Assembly (NCBI GenBank): GCA_913009635.1
Contig: CAJVXI010000011.1
Span: forward strand, 1-32,383
Origin: an uncultured bacterium
GTDB lineage: Bacteria; Patescibacteriota; Minisyncoccia; UBA6257; UBA9933
Reading direction: 5' to 3'
Length of the DNA stretch: 32,383 bases
A model generated the notes under the pieces. The model ran no database searches. It saw nothing but the letters and a program-made list of their open reading frames with translations, and was not told the DNA's origin. Positions 1 to 32,383 of this stretch are shown piece by piece. Positions within the stretch are counted from its first letter, which is position 1. Every line of letters starts with the position of its first letter. A program made the position numbers and the translations under genes.

Positions 1-172
1 TTTCACCACGCTGAAGCTTCTACTTTGTCGGAGCGAAAGCGGGTTTCACCACGCTGAAGCTTCTACTTTGTCGGAGCGAAAGCGGGTTTCACCACGCTGA
101 AGCTTCTACTTTGTCGGAGCGAAAGCGGGTTTCACCACGCTGAAGCTTCTACTTTGTCGGAGCGAAAGCGAG
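1..172. repeat. Tandem repeat, 4 copies of a 43-bp unit (tttcaccacgctgaagcttctactttgtcggagcgaaagcggg)
   Basis: Units start at 1, 44, 87 and 130 and are identical until the last bases of unit 4 (gag instead of ggg). The array runs into the contig end. Confidence 0.97.
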
Positions 173-3081: not shown

Positions 3082-4476
3082 ATGATTATTGTTTTGCCTG
3101 TTTTATCGGCAATTTTGGGAATCTTGGCGTTTTTGCCGGCTAATTTATGGTTTTTCGGATTTCTTTTTTTAGTCCCTTTATTTATTTTTTTTCTTAAAGA
3201 AAAACTCCTTTGGCGATTAATTCTCGGCGCTTTTATTTTTAGATTTATTCTTATGTTAGGAGCTGTTTATTACACCCTTGAACCGCTCGCTTGGCTTTCT
3301 TCAATTGGAATTTTTCTAGGCCTCCCAATTTCTATTTTTATTTTTAAAAAAGTATTGAAATACTTACAAACCCGCCAATTCGTTTCATTACTCGTCTTAT
3401 TGCCTTTCCTTTGGACCGTCTTTGATTATCTTACGGCTCGCTACTCTTTATTGCCGGGCTATATTATTACAACCGGCAATATATTCGGGTCTTCGCCATT
3501 TTTAGGACTATCAGCAATCGGAGGTTTAACCTTATTAACTTTTTTTGCGGCATTAGTAAACATGCTAATCACGTCAATTTTCAATTTTCGGAAGTCCGAC
3601 TTCCGAAAAATTACTGTCATTGTCATAATTATAATTATAATGCTAATAAGCGCTTGGCAAATTTCAAATTATCAAATCCAAAAAAATGCGGAAAATTATA
3701 GTAATCTTGAAAATTCTTTTAATATCGCCTCTATTTCTACTAATGAGAATTTTAACTGGTTATCTTTTAATAAAATTAAAGACAAATTAACCGACAAAGA
3801 TATAAATCTTATTATTTTTCCTGAAAATATTTTTAATAATGCCGTAAACAATAAAAAAGTTTATCAAGATTTAGCCAAAAAATTAAATACCAACTTAATT
3901 GCCACCTTTAGCACCATTCAAAACACCAAAAAATATAATTCCTCTATCTTATTTGATAAAAACGGGAAAATTATTGATACATACAACAAAAATCATTTAA
4001 CTTTTATCGGCGAATATTGGCCATTTGGCAATTGGCATCCTTTCTTTTTTAATTGGCTGAAAAAAAACAACCCAAGCATCAAAAATTACGCGGTTTTCAA
4101 CCCTCAATCTCAATATTATAAAGGAGAAAAGAAAATTTTAACAATGAAACAATTTAACAATGAAACAATTTTATTCGCTTCTCTTATTTGCTTGGAAATT
4201 CATTATCCGTCTGACATTAAAAAATATAAAAAAATGGGAGCTCAATTTATTATTAATCCCACCAGTAATCGCTGGATATATATTGGAACAAGACACTTTT
4301 TGTATCTTAATAATAATTTAAGAAAAATAAAGGCGACGCAATTAAAAATACCGATTATTTTGGCTGGAATAAAAGATTTTGCCGGTATTATTACACCAAG
4401 TGGAGAAATTAAGTTTGTGGATTTTGCGGACCAAAACAAAAACTACGAAATATTTTTAGGAAAAATTAAATATTAA
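3082..4476 (+). CDS. lnt: Apolipoprotein N-acyltransferase-like protein (multi-TM plus nitrilase domain)
   Basis: N-terminal TM segments; nitrilase-type E (FPENIF), K (KNHLTFIGEYWPFG) and C (LICLEIHYP) motifs in order. Confidence 0.8.
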   Translation: MIIVLPVLSAILGILAFLPANLWFFGFLFLVPLFIFFLKEKLLWRLILGAFIFRFILMLGAVYYTLEPLAWLSSIGIFLGLPISIFIFKKVLKYLQTRQFVSLLVLLPFLWTVFDYLTARYSLLPGYIITTGNIFGSSPFLGLSAIGGLTLLTFFAALVNMLITSIFNFRKSDFRKITVIVIIIIIMLISAWQISNYQIQKNAENYSNLENSFNIASISTNENFNWLSFNKIKDKLTDKDINLIIFPENIFNNAVNNKKVYQDLAKKLNTNLIATFSTIQNTKKYNSSILFDKNGKIIDTYNKNHLTFIGEYWPFGNWHPFFFNWLKKNNPSIKNYAVFNPQSQYYKGEKKILTMKQFNNETILFASLICLEIHYPSDIKKYKKMGAQFIINPTSNRWIYIGTRHFLYLNNNLRKIKATQLKIPIILAGIKDFAGIITPSGEIKFVDFADQNKNYEIFLGKIKY

Positions 4477-5063
4477 GGATTAATTATTGGCCTTGAGCTG
4501 ATAGTTGTTTGAAGATTAATTGTTACGTCTTTAATATCTCTGCCTATTGGGCTTATTGATAAACTAATAGTAATTCGCGGCTGTAAATTATCTCCGGTAT
4601 CGTTACCTGCAAGGATAATGTTAAAATAATTAATTTTAACATTATCAGCGGTAATTTTTTCATCCATAGGAATGCCCAAAACATCAACTTTTTTCCAAAT
4701 CGCTTCATTTTCAAAACGATAACTAACCTCTCGTTCAGAAGCATTTACAAACGCTAATTCATTATTTACTAAACCGTTGCAATGCCCCGTAAAATCAGCA
4801 TCTAAATTTAAAATAGGCGCTATATTGGTGCAAAACCTGTAACCGGTTCTGATTTCCCGAACCATCTGCTCAAAAACCAAACTAATATTATCATTAGCCT
4901 CCATTAATGCTGCAATTGATCTCTGTGCCCGAAGCGCTTGAATAAAGCTAACGCTAACAATAGATATAACAATAACAAAAATACCCATTGCGATTATCAA
5001 CTCTATTAAAGTAAAACCTTTTAGCTTTGAGTTTTTAGCTTTTAGTGAATTTCTAGTTTTCAT
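4473..5063 (-). CDS. Type IV prepilin-like protein (PilW/GspJ-like)
   Basis: KGFTLIELIIAMGIFVIVISIVSVSFIQA prepilin N-terminus. Confidence 0.85.
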   Translation of the reverse strand: MKTRNSLKAKNSKLKGFTLIELIIAMGIFVIVISIVSVSFIQALRAQRSIAALMEANDNISLVFEQMVREIRTGYRFCTNIAPILNLDADFTGHCNGLVNNELAFVNASEREVSYRFENEAIWKKVDVLGIPMDEKITADNVKINYFNIILAGNDTGDNLQPRITISLSISPIGRDIKDVTINLQTTISSRPIINP

Positions 5064-5116
5064 ATTTTAATTTTTAGTTTTTAGTTTTTATTTATCTAAC
5101 CGCTAATAGCTAAAAA

Positions 5117-6028
5117 CTAGTTATTGCATAGCCAATTAAAAAAATGGTCTTCTAGATCTATTGAAAAAGAACCTCCTCCCCTAGTTCTCCACTTAATAAT
5201 TGAATTAATCTGAATCTCGTCATTGCTTAATGGAGCAATCTGAATTGTTCTAAAAAATCGGGTAGAAACACCGCTGTCATAACTATATAAGCCATTAGAA
5301 GAATCAAATAAAAGAGGGTTATTGCTTCCATCAGGACAAGAAGTAGAAGTTAAACCAGGAATCTTAGAATCTTGGTAATCAATCTCATAACATTTAGTAA
5401 CGCCGCTAAATCCCTGTTTATTCCAGGGACCTTTTCCATCAAGACAATCAATAACATTAGCGTCAATAATATTTTTTACAATTTCAATACCTTCCATTGC
5501 TAAATAATTTGCCGTAAATTGGCTGCTAATTACCCGATTAATACTTAATGACTTAGAAAGAAAACCAATGATGCTCAAAATTCCCACTACAATAATTACA
5601 ATGGCTATTATTAATTCAATCATTAAGTAACCGTCTTTTTGAGAATTTAGAATATAGGATTTAGAATTTAGGGACTTTATTAGACCATTTATCATTTTAG
5701 AAACCTCAACAACTAATAGAATCAAATCTTGATAATCATTTTCCTGCAAGAAACCAAGTTTTTTAGAAATTTCAATTTGGCTTTCCAATTCAGAGGCTGA
5801 ACTATAAGCAACGTTATAAAATTGTAATTTTTCTTTTTTATGGACTCTTTTAAATCCTTCAGCAAGATTAGAGCTAATAGAAATAACTGCCCGCCTCATC
5901 TGATTAATAATGCCATAAAGCTCCGAACGAGGAAATTTATCGGTTATCTTATAAACTAACACCGCTAAATCAGCTGCTTTTTGCCAAACACTTAAATCTT
6001 TAAATGATTTTAATTCTTTGTTTTTCAT
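5117..6028 (-). CDS. Fusion ORF: S23/four-helix-bundle domain (N-terminal) plus prepilin domain (C-terminal)
   Basis: N-terminal FKDLSVWQKAADLAVLVYKITDKFPRSELYGIINQMRRAVISISSNLAEGFKR is typical of the S23/IVP family; residues after SKSYILNSQKDGYLMIELIIAIVIIVVGILSIIGF are prepilin-like. One uninterrupted frame. Confidence 0.8.
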   Translation of the reverse strand: MKNKELKSFKDLSVWQKAADLAVLVYKITDKFPRSELYGIINQMRRAVISISSNLAEGFKRVHKKEKLQFYNVAYSSASELESQIEISKKLGFLQENDYQDLILLVVEVSKMINGLIKSLNSKSYILNSQKDGYLMIELIIAIVIIVVGILSIIGFLSKSLSINRVISSQFTANYLAMEGIEIVKNIIDANVIDCLDGKGPWNKQGFSGVTKCYEIDYQDSKIPGLTSTSCPDGSNNPLLFDSSNGLYSYDSGVSTRFFRTIQIAPLSNDEIQINSIIKWRTRGGGSFSIDLEDHFFNWLCNN

Positions 6029-6037
6029 TATATTATT

Positions 6038-6253
6038 AACTAGAATTTAGAATATGGGATTTAGAATTTAGGGGGATGCAACGAGAATTAAGGATTTAGT
6101 ATTTAGAATTTAGGGGAAACATAAATTAAAATTTATCTCTATGTCTTATATTCTAAATTCTAATTCCTCGTCGTATTCTTCCCTATATTCTATATTCTAT
6201 ATTCTAACCCCACGTCGTATTATTCCCTAAATTCTATATTCTAAATCCTAAAT
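6038..6253. repeat. Long array of gaattta/tattcta words in inverted arrangement
   Basis: Left arm gaatttagaatatgggatttagaatttaggg...; right arm ...tattccctaaattctatattctaaatcctaaatcctcg. Confidence 0.9.
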
Positions 6254-6259
6254 CCTCGT

Positions 6260-6805
6260 TTACTGCGTAGTAATCATTCCAAATTTATTAACTTTAATTA
6301 TAACAATTGGCTCTGTACTGCCAATGATTTTTAAACTAATAGTTGCTTCTTCTTGAAAATCCGGCAAAATAGCTATAATTGGCTCGGGTGGGAAAAAAAT
6401 AATATCATCCAAAGTTAAACTGTCAAAAACAATAAAAGAATTTAAATTAAATACTTCAAAATCTTCTGATTCTCCTGAATATTGAAAATCCACATTTGAA
6501 CAATCTATTTTGGTTGCTAATTCCTTAAAAATAATAAAACTGCCATTAGAACTGTCAAAATGAACTCCAAAACCGCAAGGAACGTCCTGTTGGTTAAAAG
6601 TATTGATACTTAAAGATTTTGCCCTTGAAATGGCATTAAGAATTTTTACTTGTTCCTGAAATAAAATTATCTGCCGTTCACCGGTATGACTGTAAAAAAT
6701 TGCCATTGTGGAAAGTAGAGTTATGATGCCAATGACAATAAGAAGCTCAATAAGAGTGAAACCGCTATTACGAGAATTTAGGAATTTTATTAAATCTTTA
6801 ATCAT
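6260..6805 (-). CDS. Type IV prepilin-like protein (GspH/FimT-like)
   Basis: NSGFTLIELLIVIGIITLLSTMAIFYS; overlaps pilD by 4 bp. Confidence 0.85.
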   Translation of the reverse strand: MIKDLIKFLNSRNSGFTLIELLIVIGIITLLSTMAIFYSHTGERQIILFQEQVKILNAISRAKSLSINTFNQQDVPCGFGVHFDSSNGSFIIFKELATKIDCSNVDFQYSGESEDFEVFNLNSFIVFDSLTLDDIIFFPPEPIIAILPDFQEEATISLKIIGSTEPIVIIKVNKFGMITTQ

Positions 6806-7722
6806 AAATTAAAAAGTTTGAAATACGCGTTAATTATTTGATAACCGAAGAAAAAAATTGAAGCCGCGCCAATAATCAAAAATGGGCCAAATGGTACAGC
6901 GTCTTTCATTTTCTTTTTACCGTTAACCAAAAGAACTGTACTGAAAATTCCGCCAATCAAAAAAGAAAATATTAAAATCATTATAATGTCTGGCCAGCCA
7001 AAAATTAAGCCCAAAGCGCCAACCAATTTCAAATCGCCCCAGCCCATTGCTTTGCCCTTACTTAAAAAAATAATGAGCCAAAAGAAAACTACTCCAAAAA
7101 TAGCGGCAATAAAATGGCTCAACCAGATATTCTCAAACATCCAAGATGTCCCAAAAAGATAAGCGTAAGAGCCTAGAAACGAATTGGAAATTGCCTGCCC
7201 GCCAAAACCTGCGGCTTCAGACATTGGAAGACGGGAAAATTGAAAATTAAAAATTATTAAAACTATACCTAATACTGCCAAAGATAAATTAATTTGATTA
7301 GGTATTATATATTGGCGGAAATCTATAATAGAAAGCAAGAGAAAAAGCAAAAAAATCGCTATCCAAACTATAGTAATCAGTAATTGATAATTGGAAATTA
7401 ATTGAAAATTGAAAATTGAAAATTTAGAATTTAGAATTTTTATCGGCACCAATAAAAAAATTAAGCCCGATAAAAATTCTACGACTAGGTATTGCCAAAA
7501 AAACCGCTTACCGCAGGAACGACAACGGCCTTTTTGAACAATAAAGCTTAAAATCGGAATTAATTCATACCAAGACAATGTTTTCTGGCAACTCAAACAC
7601 TGAGAACGACCGCTAATAATTTTTAAATTCAAAAGCCGATTGCCTGGAACATAACGGAGAGAAACTACATTAAGGAAACTTCCGACAGCAAGACCGAAAA
7701 TAAAAAGTAAAAAATAATACAT
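6802..7722 (-). CDS. pilD: Prepilin peptidase (A24 family)
   Basis: CLSCQKTLSWYELIPILSFIVQKGRCRSCGKRF N-terminal domain; KAMGWGDLKLVGALGLIFGW catalytic motif. Confidence 0.92.
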   Translation of the reverse strand: MYYFLLFIFGLAVGSFLNVVSLRYVPGNRLLNLKIISGRSQCLSCQKTLSWYELIPILSFIVQKGRCRSCGKRFFWQYLVVEFLSGLIFLLVPIKILNSKFSIFNFQLISNYQLLITIVWIAIFLLFLLLSIIDFRQYIIPNQINLSLAVLGIVLIIFNFQFSRLPMSEAAGFGGQAISNSFLGSYAYLFGTSWMFENIWLSHFIAAIFGVVFFWLIIFLSKGKAMGWGDLKLVGALGLIFGWPDIIMILIFSFLIGGIFSTVLLVNGKKKMKDAVPFGPFLIIGAASIFFFGYQIINAYFKLFNL

Positions 7723-7780: not shown

Positions 7781-8224
7781 TTAGAATGACACGCAGTAAA
7801 TTGGATCAGCGCAATCAATTGAATAAACCGTTCCATCAACATCGTCATTAAGCGCCCTATGATTTGTATCTTCTAAACGCGCGCCAAGAACATAACTTTG
7901 AAGCGAAGGAAGACCACCACTGTCAACACCATATCTGTAATAAAAATCAGTATCATTTAGTGGATCAAGCGAAATAGATCTAACTCCAACACCAGCGCCT
8001 ATCAAAGCTGTTTGTAAAGCGCCCCATGTGCTTACATCAGGATACGCATCATTTACTTGATAATAAAGCTCAAGCGCCTGCTGCGTTGACCTTAAATCAG
8101 CTATTCTTTTGGCATCTCGGGCTGCTCCTCTGCGAGAGCCTAAACCAACTATTATTATTCCTGCTAAAATTCCAATAATAGCAATAACAATCAACATTTC
8201 TATTAAAGTAAAACCTCGTCTCAT
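7781..8224 (-). CDS. Type IV pilin, probable major pilin
   Basis: MRRGFTLIEMLIVIAIIGILAGIIIVGLGSRRGAARDAKRIADLRSTQQALELYY. Confidence 0.9.
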   Translation of the reverse strand: MRRGFTLIEMLIVIAIIGILAGIIIVGLGSRRGAARDAKRIADLRSTQQALELYYQVNDAYPDVSTWGALQTALIGAGVGVRSISLDPLNDTDFYYRYGVDSGGLPSLQSYVLGARLEDTNHRALNDDVDGTVYSIDCADPIYCVSF

Positions 8225-14519: not shown

Positions 14520-15653
14520 GAATTCCCTTATTCCCAATCCAATACTTACTGCAAATGGCGGACCTAATTCTTTAATAATTGGCTTAATTTCCGGAGAATA
14601 ATCAACCTGAGAAAATGGGTCGCCTATAACCGTTGTTAAGCCAATCTGTTTTTCAAAATACGTATCAATTCCTAAAAGATTAGCGCCACCGCCAGTCAAA
14701 ATAACTCGTTCAATCCTTCGACTTTGCTCAGGATTGATGGTGAGCGAAGTCGAACCATCAATTTTAGAACCGGAATTTTTTTCGTAGTTGTCTTTTGCCC
14801 GCTTTACTTCAGTAATTATAGCATCTAAAAATGGAATAGTTAATGTGGATAACTCATAATCACCTCCCACTCCAATAATGCCTTTTTGCTTTTTAAGCTC
14901 TTCGGCGCGCCTAATATTAATATTTAAACCGCTGGCAATTGCTTGAGTTAAGGAGCCACCAGAAAAATCTGTCTGACTATTGTGTCTTAAATAACCTTTA
15001 TCAATAATAGCAATATTCGTAGAGCGTGCCCCAATATCAACAATTGCGGTCGGCGTCGGATCATTGGCAATTAAAGCTCTAACCAAAGCTAAACTTTCAA
15101 CCTCTAAAGCCCGGAGATTAAGTCCGGCTAATTTAAAAATATTTTGATACTTCCTAATTTGTTCATTTGGCACAGAAATTAAAATAACCTGCTGCTTATT
15201 CACTCCTTTTTCATCTTGTCTTTTACCAACAGGCAGCCAATCAATAGTTACTTCTGAAGTTGGCAATGGAATATATTGACGCACCTGATACTTCATTGTT
15301 TCCATAATTTCCGATACCGGCATTTCCGGTATTTCTAAAAGAGTAATAAAAGCCGAAAAAGCTGGAATTGAAGCAACAACGTCGCGACTTTTGCATTTTA
15401 ACTGCTTTATAAGAATTTTTAAAAATTTAGCGGCCTCTTGGTCCATTATTTTTAGAGAACTGGTTTGAAGAGCATCATTTAATCTCTCTAAATGGCCATA
15501 ACTTTCTAAAAAACCATAAGTTTTAAGTTTTGGTTTTGTAGATGTCTTAATAATCTCAACCACTTTTATAGAAGTGGTGCCAATATCAACACCAAGATAA
15601 GATTTAGTTCCAAAAATATTGAACATGATAATAATGTAAAATGTAAATATCAA
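14514..15653 (-). CDS. pilM: Type IV pilus assembly ATPase-like PilM
   Basis: SYLGVDIGTTSIKVVEI, AIVDIGARSTNIAII, RVILTGGGANLLGI. True start may be the internal Met at 15626 (MFNIFG). Confidence 0.92.
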   Translation of the reverse strand: MIFTFYIIIMFNIFGTKSYLGVDIGTTSIKVVEIIKTSTKPKLKTYGFLESYGHLERLNDALQTSSLKIMDQEAAKFLKILIKQLKCKSRDVVASIPAFSAFITLLEIPEMPVSEIMETMKYQVRQYIPLPTSEVTIDWLPVGKRQDEKGVNKQQVILISVPNEQIRKYQNIFKLAGLNLRALEVESLALVRALIANDPTPTAIVDIGARSTNIAIIDKGYLRHNSQTDFSGGSLTQAIASGLNINIRRAEELKKQKGIIGVGGDYELSTLTIPFLDAIITEVKRAKDNYEKNSGSKIDGSTSLTINPEQSRRIERVILTGGGANLLGIDTYFEKQIGLTTVIGDPFSQVDYSPEIKPIIKELGPPFAVSIGLGIREFV

Positions 15654-15776
15654 AATGGAAAATGACAGATTAAAATGTTAAAATTGTTTTCGTTTTTTTG
15701 ACTCATTTTGAAATTTTACATTGTCATTTTGATTTTTGATTTTTGATTTTTACATTTTTGAAATTTGATTAGTAAT
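15636..15776. repeat. Second copy of the aaaatgtaaa/tttacatttt inverted-repeat family
   Basis: aatgtaaatatcaaaatggaaaatgacagattaaaatgttaaaattg ... cattttgaaattttacattgtcattttgatttttgatttttgatttttac. Confidence 0.88.
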
Positions 15777-15804: not shown

Positions 15805-16518
15805 ATGTTTTTAATAAAAGCCAAAAATACCATTCTAAATATCCTCTTCTCTCCTATTTGTATAAATTGCCAACGGCATTTAGATGAAAAAAATAAATTA
15901 ATCTGCAAACAATGCATGTCTTTGATTAAATCCAATAATACTTTCTTCTGCCCAATTTGCAGAGCCAGATTAACTAAAAATAAAAATACCTGCCATAGTA
16001 ATTCTTATCTCTTAGCCGCGGCTGGAAATTATTCTGACCCGATTTTTCAAAATCTAATACATTATTTCAAGTATAAATACTTTGATAATTTAACTCCGCT
16101 TTTAGGCGGATTACTTCTGAAATATTTCAAATATATAGACCCTAAATTCTATATTCTAAATTCTAAATCCTATATTATAATCCCAATCCCCCTTCATCCC
16201 AGCAGAGAACGCCAACGTGGTTTTAATCAGGCAAAATTATTAGCAAAATTCGTATCCAATAATTTAAATTTAAAATTAGTTGAAGGATTAAGGCGAATTA
16301 AAAATACAGGATCACAAAGTCAGCAAAAAAATAAAGAAGCTCGTAATAAAAATATTATTGGCTGTTTCAAAATAAGAAGCTCCGAATCAGTCAAGGAGAA
16401 AAATATTATTTTAGTTGACGATGTTTTTACTTCAGGAGCCACCATGAACGAAGCAATAAAAATTTTAAAAATGAATGGCGCTAAAAAAATTATTGCTTTG
16501 GTTTTAGCTAAAGCGTAA
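15805..16518 (+). CDS. comF: ComF family phosphoribosyltransferase-like protein
   Basis: N-terminal zinc-finger cysteines, IPIPLHPSRERQRGFNQAKLLAK and IILVDDVFTSGATMNEA. Confidence 0.92.
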   Translation: MFLIKAKNTILNILFSPICINCQRHLDEKNKLICKQCMSLIKSNNTFFCPICRARLTKNKNTCHSNSYLLAAAGNYSDPIFQNLIHYFKYKYFDNLTPLLGGLLLKYFKYIDPKFYILNSKSYIIIPIPLHPSRERQRGFNQAKLLAKFVSNNLNLKLVEGLRRIKNTGSQSQQKNKEARNKNIIGCFKIRSSESVKEKNIILVDDVFTSGATMNEAIKILKMNGAKKIIALVLAKA

Positions 16519-21632: not shown

Positions 21633-21711
21633 AAAAAATAGTATAAATTAAGTTATATGATATCTTTGTTAATTGTTAGCCATTATTAAATAAATGTCAA
21701 GCTATCCAAAT

Positions 21712-21838
21712 GAAAAATTCAAATATCAAAATGGAAAATGACAGTGTAAAATTTCAAAATGAATTAAAACGAACGGAAACAATTTTAACATTTTGATTTG
21801 TCATTTTGAATTTTTAATTTTTACACTTTCAATTATTT
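21712..21838. repeat. Third copy of the aaaatgtaaa/tttacatttt inverted-repeat family
   Basis: aaattcaaatatcaaaatggaaaatgacagtgtaaaatttcaaaatg ... cattttgatttgtcattttgaatttttaatttttacacttt. Confidence 0.87.
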
Positions 21839-21842
21839 ATTT

Positions 21843-30228: not shown

Positions 30229-31413
30229 TTATACTAACTTTTTAACAATTTTAGGTAAAGTTCTCAGCACATAATTAATATCATTTTTAGCTGTATCTCT
30301 TCCTAGTGTCATCCTAAGGGCGCCTTTAGTAAATTTTGGCGATAATTTAATTGCCGAAAGAACATGGGAAAAATTTGTATTGCTTGAAGCGCATGCGGAA
30401 CCAGTTGAAGCGGAAATACCGCATTTATCCAACGCCAGAACCAACGCCTCACCATTAACGCCAGGAATTGAAATATTAATGTTATTCGGCAATCTTTTTA
30501 CATAATGGCCATTAAGCCGACATTTTGGAATAGATTTTAAAAGATTTTTAATAAAATAATTGCGCAAATCTCGTAAGCGCTGGCTTTCTTTTCTTCTCAT
30601 TTTTTCCGTTAATTTCAACGCTTCGCCAAACCCAACTATTAAAGCTGTATTTTCGGTTCCGGCTCTAAAATTTCTTTCCTGACCCCCTCCAATAATCATC
30701 GACTCTAACTTAATTTCTTCTGATTTATACAAGCAGCCCACTCCTTTGGGTCCGTAAATTTTTGAACCATTCAAAGTCATCAAATCAACGCCTAATTTTT
30801 TAACATTTAGAGACAGAAAATTAGCTGCCTGACAAGCGTCGGTGTGAAGCAGCGGCAGTACCGCTGCTGAGCTTTTAGCTTTTAGCTTATAGCTTTTAGT
30901 CTTTCTAAAATTGCTGATTATTTCAGCAATTTTAGAAATTGGCTGTATGGTTCCGATTTCATTATTGGCATACATTATTGAAACTAAAATCGTATCCCGC
31001 TTAAATGCCCTTTTAAGTTCTGAAATCTTAACAATTCCTTTTGAATCAACATTCAAATAAGTAACCTTAAAACCCTCTTTTTCTAGTGTTTTAACCGCCT
31101 CTAAAACCGCTTTGTGTTCTATTTTTGAAACGATAATATGCTTTCCCTTATTTTTATAAGCTCTAGCAATTCCCAAAATAGCCAAATTATCCGACTCCGT
31201 ACCTGAACCGGTAAAAATAATTTCCTCTGAATTAGAATTTAATACTTCAGCAATATTTCTTCGCGCGCCTTCAATAGCGGATTTTGCTTCTCTACCAAGA
31301 GAATACAAAGAAGATGGGTTGCCAAATTTTTTTGTTAAATACGGCAACATTTTATTTAAAACCCTTTTATCAATATAAGTGGTAGCTGCATAATCCAAAT
31401 AAATGTTTTTCAT
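30229..31413 (-). CDS. Cysteine desulfurase (NifS/IscS-like)
   Basis: YLDYAATTYID, FTGSGTESDNLAI, LHTDACQAANFL, LNGSKIYGPKGVGCLY, STGSACASSNTNFSHVL. Confidence 0.95.
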   Translation of the reverse strand: MKNIYLDYAATTYIDKRVLNKMLPYLTKKFGNPSSLYSLGREAKSAIEGARRNIAEVLNSNSEEIIFTGSGTESDNLAILGIARAYKNKGKHIIVSKIEHKAVLEAVKTLEKEGFKVTYLNVDSKGIVKISELKRAFKRDTILVSIMYANNEIGTIQPISKIAEIISNFRKTKSYKLKAKSSAAVLPLLHTDACQAANFLSLNVKKLGVDLMTLNGSKIYGPKGVGCLYKSEEIKLESMIIGGGQERNFRAGTENTALIVGFGEALKLTEKMRRKESQRLRDLRNYFIKNLLKSIPKCRLNGHYVKRLPNNINISIPGVNGEALVLALDKCGISASTGSACASSNTNFSHVLSAIKLSPKFTKGALRMTLGRDTAKNDINYVLRTLPKIVKKLV

Positions 31414-32221
31414 ATTAATTCATTATATTCTTTTATAAATCTATCAGTAATTTTTAGTAAAGAAAATTCTGTTTCTACTAATTGCTTTCCTTTACGGTCT
31501 ATTTCTTTACTTAGCTTCGAATTACTTAAAACTTTCAAAATTGCTTCAATCAACTGAGTTTTATCTTTTTTAATAACTATGCCGGCATTGGCTTTTAAAA
31601 TACTTGGCGATATGCCGACTCCTTTAGTAATCACTACTGGCAAACCAAAATACATTGCCTCAATTACCGCCATTCCGAAATTTTCCGAATATGAAGGCAA
31701 AACAAAAATATCACTATCATGGAAAGCGGCAATTTTGTCTTTGCCAATAATCATTCCCGTAAAAATAACTTTCTCTTTAAGATTGTATTTTTCAATAAAC
31801 TTATCAACTGTTTTTTTATACCCTTCGTCATTGCCGCCAGCCAAAACCAAAATTGCTTTTGGCTCTTTTTTTATAACTTCAGCGAAAGCCGGTATTAAGG
31901 TATCCAAACCTTTTTTCCAATTCAAGCGGCTTAAAAACAAAACTATTTTTTTATCCGCAGCAATACCAAACTTCTCCCTAAAATCAATCTTACGAAGTTG
32001 AACTTCGTAAGATTTAAATTCTTGGAGGTCTAAGCCGTTGGGAATGATAATGGATTTTTTAAGCGGCAGGTTGAAATTTAAATATTCATCTTTTTCCGCT
32101 TCAACAGTAAAATGAATTGCCGCCGCCCCTCGCAAATTTCTCTTTTCAATTAAGGAAATATAAATTTTCTTTTTAAGCAAACTTTTTTTCTTTAATGGCT
32201 CTTTCATCAAGCTGCCCCGGG
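31410..32221 (-). CDS. Glycosyltransferase (GT4-like), 5'-truncated by the artefactual contig end
   Basis: VLFLSRLNWKKGLDTLIPAFAEVIKKEPKAILVLAGG, PSYSENFGMAVIEAMYFGLPVV. Bases beyond about 32221 are adapter. Confidence 0.9.
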
Positions 32222-32287
32222 AGATCGGAAGAGCACACGTCTGAACTCCAGTCACATTCCTTTATCTCGTATGCCGTCTTCTGCTTG
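32222..32287 (+). other. Illumina TruSeq-type adapter plus index (sequencing artefact)
   Basis: AGATCGGAAGAGCACACGTCTGAACTCCAGTCAC + ATTCCTTT + ATCTCGTATGCCGTCTTCTGCTTG. Confidence 0.99.
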
Positions 32288-32383
32288 AAAAAAAAAAAGA
32301 ACAAAAAAAAAAAAAAAAAACATCTTACACCTATCTTCACACAATCCTAATTACCTACAGTCTACTTCCTTCATCTTCTCCTT
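32288..32383. other. Post-adapter poly-A and low-quality sequence
   Basis: A-run immediately after the adapter, then C/T/A-rich, almost G-free sequence. Confidence 0.95.

What the first reader, a model, noticed from the sequence alone, without database searches (positions are those of the whole stretch)
5117..6028. In-frame fusion of an S23/four-helix-bundle domain to a type IV prepilin
The ORF reads without interruption from a typical S23-type domain through NSKSYILNSQKDG into YLMIELIIAIVIIVVGILSIIGF, a prepilin helix. A prepilin with ~140 residues before the peptidase site would be highly unusual. Either the proteins are truly fused and cut by PilD, or the prepilin starts internally at Met 5695 (MINGLIKSLNSKSYILNSQKDG...), leaving two overlapping genes in one frame. 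The G-Y-L-M-I-E-L site departs from the GFTLIEL used by the neighbouring prepilins.
Basis: partly seen in the sequence, partly recalled or inferred. Interest (0 to 1): 0.7.

Follow-up and report, generated by a model that had tools for sequence, protein, structure and literature searches.

The report
Mobile S23 element fused to prepilin
In this Patescibacterium a small repeat-bounded gene of unknown function (S23, the kind found in 23S rRNA intervening sequences) has inserted just ahead of a pilus-subunit gene and reads straight into it, and the same accident recurs in many related bacteria, always ahead of proteins whose N-terminus is an export signal, usually one that is cut off.

Summary
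One uninterrupted ORF (5117-6028, minus) joins a 23S_rRNA_IVP/S23 domain (residues 10-115) to a PilV-like prepilin; the peptidase site is G133|Y134. It is not an error and not a lone oddity. The prepilin is standalone in relatives, so the S23 part is an insertion. S23 genes here and elsewhere are bounded by 7-bp repeat arrays complementary to each other (105/142 S23 genes against 12/188 control genes), the architecture of 23S rRNA intervening sequences. In the window the right-hand array encodes the prepilin leader (NSKSYILNSQ). The same element, 76-81% identical only up to its arms, sits before other exported-protein genes in other families. In all, 18 S23 ORFs read into a downstream gene: 18/18 partners carry an N-terminal export signal (14 prepilin/PilX-like, 4 Sec), against 35/99 for unfused neighbours. 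A congener pair shows a near-empty site. Most likely the ORF is translated as one chain and split by PilD, releasing S23 in the cytoplasm; initiation at ATG 5695 cannot be excluded, but two other fusions have no usable internal start. GYLMIEL is the normal motif of this prepilin family. Expression, cleavage and transposition are inferred, not shown.

The parts
5117..6028 (-). Fused ORF, 303 aa: S23/23S_rRNA_IVP domain, repeat-encoded linker, PilV-like prepilin
5681..6028 (-). S23 (four-helix-bundle) coding part, residues 1-116; dN/dS 0.09-0.17 against the four other copies of the same S23 subfamily
   Evidence: (PDB 2gsc E=2e-18)
5641..5674 (-). Right heptad arm (CCCTAAATTCTAAATCCTATATTCTAAATTCTC), read in frame as LNSKSYILNS, serving as prepilin leader
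6224..6257 (-). Outer left heptad arm, 85% complementary to the right arm over 34 nt; begins 2 nt after the stop codon of the upstream prepilin
   Evidence: (I3)
6042..6073 (-). Inner arm, direct copy (97%) of the right arm, just upstream of the S23 start
   Evidence: D3
6080..6260 (-). Non-coding hairpin with the same arms (36 nt, 89% complementary), probably a nested gene-less element; the 6036-6262 stretch folds with z = -5.3
   Evidence: (I1)
5693..5695 (-). Internal ATG (Met112), GAGG 8 nt upstream, duplex -6.3 kcal/mol; alternative start giving a 22-aa leader
5627..5632 (-). Predicted prepilin peptidase site G133|Y134 (GYLMIEL)
5120..5629 (-). Mature PilV-like minor pilin, conserved standalone in relatives; the only copy found in this genome
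6802..7722 (-). Prepilin peptidase PilD gene of the same operon, the expected cutting enzyme (assigned from its sequence and its place in the operon; no family search was run on it)

Best explanation
The ORF arose when an S23 element (an S23 gene between complementary 7-bp repeat arrays, the same architecture as a 23S rRNA intervening sequence) inserted between two minor-prepilin genes of a type IV pilus operon. Its right arm replaced the prepilin's own start and leader and stays in frame with S23. The most likely working is that the ribosome makes one chain from ATG 6028, the prepilin helix inserts N-in, PilD cuts after Gly133 on the cytoplasmic side, and a normal pilin plus a free cytoplasmic S23 protein with a short leader-derived tail result. 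Initiation at ATG 5695 may supply extra prepilin. Such joins survive ahead of export signals because the added domain stays in the cytoplasm and is cut away. Shown here: insertion, arms, frame, recurrence, partner bias. Inferred: translation, cleavage, mobility.
For: Prepilin matched in 124/151 genomes searched; in the 29 homologous loci examined it is standalone with a short leader. All seven S23-family loci that a search with the window protein found in this genome are bounded by matching repeat arrays, unit differing per locus. Inverted arms: 105/142 S23 genes against 12/188 control genes, p=7e-40; no such excess for direct arms. The same element is 76-81% identical to the window copy in three other genomes (G041, Brennerbacteria, Terrybacteria) from arm to arm with no homology outside, before different genes; a fourth copy (L090) matches over the S23 gene only. 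18/18 fusion partners have N-terminal export signals, against 35/99 unfused same-strand neighbours, p=1e-7; the last two fusions were fetched on open-frame length alone and fitted. Congeners G103/G059: homology breaks at the stop of one pilin and resumes inside the next leader; G059 has the pilin with its own ATG. Two fusions (L073b, L142b) have no ATG/GTG/TTG between S23's last 20 codons and the signal. The transcript folds arm to arm, z=-3.9. Prepilin leaders are cytoplasmic and PilD cuts there (PMC10191384).
Against: No proteomic, transcript or cleavage data. Known leaders are 6-26 aa (PMC4471445), so PilD acting on a 133-aa leader is untested. The internal ATG 5695 has a good Shine-Dalgarno match, though few genes of this window use one, and an ATG near that position is no commoner in fused than in unfused S23 genes. 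In Coxiella the S23 protein appears not to be made (PMC4990558). No transposase or integrase is visible and no target duplication is defined. The window copy's inner left arm is direct rather than inverted, so it is a composite, and its own arm score within 140 nt is low (1.2).
Confidence: 0.6

Rival explanations
1. Two overlapping genes in one frame: S23 from ATG 6028 and the prepilin from internal ATG 5695, with a 22-aa leader made of the S23 C-terminal helix end plus the repeat arm.
For: ATG 5695 has GAGG 8 nt upstream (-6.3 kcal/mol); 22 aa is a normal leader length and K-rich; 13/18 fused S23 genes have an ATG in the last 22 codons.
Against: 82/138 unfused S23 genes have such an ATG too, p=0.44, so it is part of S23; two fusions have no internal start codon there; few starts in this window show a Shine-Dalgarno match.
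Confidence: 0.3
2. A purposeful domain fusion: the S23 domain has a role in pilus assembly or regulation and was selected to be part of the prepilin.
For: Recurs ahead of pilins (14 class III or PilX-like fusions); the S23 coding part is under purifying selection, dN/dS 0.09-0.21.
Against: Not retained in relatives: standalone in the other homologous loci examined; gained or lost within one genus; different S23 subfamilies and arms at different pilins; four partners are Sec-exported, not pilins; most S23 genes are unfused, beside unrelated genes.
Confidence: 0.07
3. Assembly or sequencing error joining two genes.
For: The genome is a 26-contig draft with adapter sequence at this contig's end.
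Against: 17 other in-frame joins in 15 other genomes; the junction lies inside a contig; the arm with the same open frame is found in three other genomes.
Confidence: 0.03

Closest known systems
23S rRNA intervening sequence (IVS) with S23p ORF (Coxiella, Leptospira)
   Same: S23 ORF inside terminal inverted repeats that form a stem; the Coxiella IVS has heptameric repeats (GACAGAT) just upstream of the S23p start and a 28-bp stem (PMC4990558).
   Different: Lies in a protein-coding operon, not in rRNA; arms are themselves arrays of 7-mers; the ORF runs through its right arm into a host gene.
Free-standing four helix bundle proteins (TIGR02436, PF05635; PDB 2gsc, 2rld)
   Same: Same domain, full length, above curated cut-offs.
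   Different: I found no description in the held papers of their flanking complementary heptamer arrays or of fusions to exported proteins.
Avd / bAvd accessory protein of diversity-generating retroelements
   Same: Related fold (from general knowledge) and weak sequence match (bAvd E=1.6e-9, NCBIfam Avd 8.7e-10).
   Different: Below the curated cut-offs; no reverse transcriptase was noticed nearby (no dedicated search was made).
TAACTGA heptamer repeat sets (MacGregor 2015, PMC4679880)
   Same: Intergenic 7-bp tandem repeats, often at start codons, in Beggiatoaceae, Cyanobacteria and Bacteroidetes.
   Different: One fixed heptamer, nearly always direct, no S23 gene mentioned; here the unit differs per element and the two sides are complementary.
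PilV-like minor prepilins of Patescibacteria type IV pilus operons
   Same: Motif, operon position and sequence.
   Different: 133-residue leader containing a whole domain instead of a short one.

Membership tests
S23 / 23S_rRNA_IVP (PF05635, TIGR02436) | Domain match above curated cut-off over full length | tested here: met
   124.6 bits (cut-off 33.8), profile 1-106/106; 119.7 bits (cut-off 24)
23S rRNA IVS element | Located inside a 23S rRNA gene | tested here: not met
   It lies between prepilin genes of a pil operon
23S rRNA IVS element | Terminal inverted repeats able to form a stem around the S23 ORF | tested here: met
   Arms 5641-5674/6224-6257, 85% complementary; folds arm to arm
23S rRNA IVS element | Excision from the transcript by RNase III | not testable with these tools
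   Needs RNA data
Type IV prepilin | Class III signal: G|xxxxE followed by about 20 hydrophobic residues | tested here: met
   G133|YLMIE and hydropathy 3.3; N-termini of the orthologues
Type IV prepilin | Short cytoplasmic leader (6-26 aa, PMC4471445) | tested here: inconclusive
   133 aa if translation starts at 6028, 22 aa if it starts at 5695
Type IV prepilin | Cleaved by PilD and assembled | not testable with these tools
   Experiment needed; a PilD gene is in the operon
DGR Avd | Score above the Avd model's curated cut-off | tested here: not met
   38.8 bits, cut-off 80
DGR Avd | Adjacent reverse transcriptase and template/variable repeats | not tested
   None was noticed among the window ORFs, but no dedicated search was made
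Autonomous transposable element | Encodes its own transposase, integrase or reverse transcriptase | tested here: not met
   The fused S23 ORF is the only ORF of 60 aa or more listed between the arms

The most novel reading that the evidence does not exclude
S23 genes outside rRNA are a widespread family of IVS-like mobile elements bounded by complementary heptamer arrays, which spread by inserting before genes and persist as read-through fusions where an export signal lets prepilin peptidase or signal peptidase release the S23 protein. Their arms are a recurrent raw material for new prepilin leaders and Sec signal peptides.
Probability: 0.4. Interest if true: 0.82.

Novelty: new variant of a known kind. 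Interest (0 to 1): 0.62.

Why it matters
S23 proteins are common, structurally solved and of unknown function, and the rRNA IVS is the only setting in which their element has been described in the papers I could search. Showing that free-standing S23 genes have the same stem-forming, heptamer-built ends makes them one kind of element and gives a clear test of what S23 does. The recurrent fusions show a way in which an inserted gene can tap a host gene without harm, by using an N-terminus that is cut away, and point to repeat arrays as a source of new leader and signal peptides: 18/116 prepilin leaders show strong 7-bp periodicity against 10/384 other gene starts.

Tried and rejected
Sequencing or assembly error: rejected on recurrence. 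Deviant cleavage motif: rejected, it is the family norm. Internal start under selection in fused copies: no enrichment of ATG (13/18 against 82/138, p=0.44). Fusion conserved for pilus function: rejected as main reading, sporadic and gained or lost within a genus. The window genus has no other held genome. No solved structure is close in sequence to the pilin part. Paper searches for S23 with Patescibacteria or for prepilin N-terminal fusions found no description. No structure prediction was run: the domain identity was already clear.

Full report
WHAT IS THERE. The ORF 5117-6028 on the minus strand is open over 303 codons. Residues 10-115 are a complete 23S_rRNA_IVP domain (E=2.4e-36; TIGR02436; PDB relative 2gsc, E=2e-18). 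From residue 134 it is a PilV-like minor prepilin. Counting on the sequence, Gly133 (codon 5630-5632) is the peptidase position, so the fused leader is 133 aa, and Met112 (5695) would give a 22-aa leader. The operon holds the usual pil genes, including a PilD gene at 6802-7722, two other prepilins upstream (6260-6805, 7781-8224) and one just downstream (4473-5063).

THE PREPILIN ALONE IS THE ANCESTRAL STATE. A search with only the pilin part matched 124 of 151 genomes. In the 29 homologous loci read out, the gene is standalone, often starting on or near the stop codon of the preceding prepilin, with a leader of roughly 5 to 25 residues and the motif G[YQ][LI][LMI][IV]E. So GYLMIEL is ordinary. 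This is the only match to that prepilin in the window genome.

S23 GENES SIT IN REPEAT-BOUNDED UNITS. The seven S23 loci found in this genome with the window protein (the Pfam profile counts twelve matches) each lie between arrays of 7-bp or 8-bp repeats; the unit differs from locus to locus but the two sides match each other, nearly always as complements. Over 142 S23 genes from many genomes, 105 have complementary flanks at z>3 against dinucleotide-shuffled flanks; 12 of 188 other genes from the same loci do (p=7e-40), and direct-repeat similarity shows no such excess (14/142 against 13/188; smaller first run, where lag-7 self-match is 0.443 in S23 flanks against 0.319 in control flanks). 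Several Bacteroidota copies show it too. This is the plan of the 23S rRNA intervening sequence: in Coxiella an S23p ORF inside a 28-bp terminal stem, with heptameric repeats just before its start codon (PMC4990558).

THE WINDOW COPY. The outer left arm (6224-6257) starts 2 nt after the stop codon of the upstream prepilin and is 85% complementary over 34 nt to the right arm (5641-5674). The right arm is read in frame as LNSKSYILNS and forms the leader. Between the outer arm and the S23 start lies a further hairpin built of the same arms (6080-6260), so the copy is composite, and its nearest left arm is a direct copy of the right arm. The transcript folds with outer left arm paired to right arm (z=-3.9). 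The same element is found in G041, Brennerbacteria (G022) and Terrybacteria: 76-81% DNA identity to the window copy over about 390 nt, ending at the arms, with unrelated sequence outside. A related copy in L090 (Parcubacteria) matches over the S23 gene (76% over 357 nt) but not in the right arm. The S23 parts evolve under constraint (dN/dS 0.09-0.21).

FUSIONS RECUR AND ARE SELECTIVE. Taking every S23 ORF examined that runs 60 or more residues past its domain gives 18 fusions in 16 genomes. All 18 continue into a protein with an N-terminal export signal: 14 prepilin-like (four of them PilX-like, without Glu5) and 4 with Sec signal peptides. Among 99 unfused S23 genes with a same-strand neighbour, 35 neighbours have an N-terminal hydrophobic stretch, about the rate of background genes (78/233); p=1e-7 for fused against unfused. 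The last two fusions, L192 and L193, were fetched on open-frame length alone after the pattern had been seen, and both fitted. In the two L142 cases and L090 the hydrophobic core of the signal peptide appears to be encoded partly by repeat-like sequence. More widely, 18 of 116 prepilin leaders are strongly 7-periodic against 10 of 384 other gene starts (p=2e-6).

A NEAR-EMPTY SITE. G103 and G059 are of one genus, 84-86% identical here. G059 has PilV then PilJ with its own ATG and a repeat-like leader (MKPKTRNPKLEIRTARGGFTIIEL). In G103 homology stops at the PilV stop codon and resumes just before GFTIIEL, with an S23 element in between reading into the pilin. Whether G059 is the site before insertion or a site after loss of the gene is not decided.

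HOW IT WORKS. Shown: insertion, arms, open frame, partner bias. Inferred: one chain is made and PilD cuts it. The leader of a prepilin stays in the cytoplasm and is cut there (PMC10191384), so an extra cytoplasmic domain need not cross the membrane and is removed; by the same topology argument an N-terminal extension ahead of a Sec signal stays inside. Two fusions have no ATG, GTG or TTG between S23's last helix and the signal, so at least there the chain must start in or before S23 unless a rarer start codon is used. In the window, ATG 5695 with GAGG 8 nt upstream is a real alternative, but an ATG near that position is as common in unfused S23 genes.

LIMITS. Draft genomes, no expression data, export signals judged by hydropathy and motif, related genomes not fully independent, PilX-like cleavage not tested, no enzyme of movement identified, and papers searched only among open-access ones.

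Noticed in passing
window 32221-32290: Illumina TruSeq adapter with index and poly-A (AGATCGGAAGAGCACACGTCTGAACTCCAGTCAC...TCTCGTATGCCGTCTTCTGCTTG) at the contig end; it makes the false N-terminus MTGVQTCALPIS of ORF 31410-32255. Sequence beyond it is doubtful.
   Followed up: partly
window 7381-7439: A 7-bp repeat array lies in frame inside the PilD gene, coding IKILNSKFSIFNFQLISNYQL between hydrophobic segments.
   Followed up: no
window 16142-16180: A 7-bp array lies in frame inside a ComF-like phosphoribosyltransferase gene (FYILNSKSYI).
   Followed up: no
window 15633-15770, 21692-21842: Gene-less pairs of complementary heptamer arrays, possibly S23 elements without the gene.
   Followed up: no
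window 5019-5090: The downstream prepilin (4473-5063) also has a heptamer array running through its start codon into its leader (MKTRNSLKAKNSKLKG).
   Followed up: partly
window 1-170: Four perfect copies of a 43-bp tandem repeat at the contig start.
   Followed up: no
L073 (G041:C17:7000-13000): Two S23 elements of different subfamilies in tandem, each fused to a consecutive pilin-like gene.
   Followed up: partly
L007 (G000:C7:24300-27698), match 1501-1899: An S23 copy with an apparent frameshift near its start, flanked by complementary arrays, upstream of a prepilin gene.
   Followed up: no
L086, L087: S23 genes inside operons that look like PrgI/VirB4-type secretion loci, so pilus operons are not the only secretion loci hit.
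   Followed up: no
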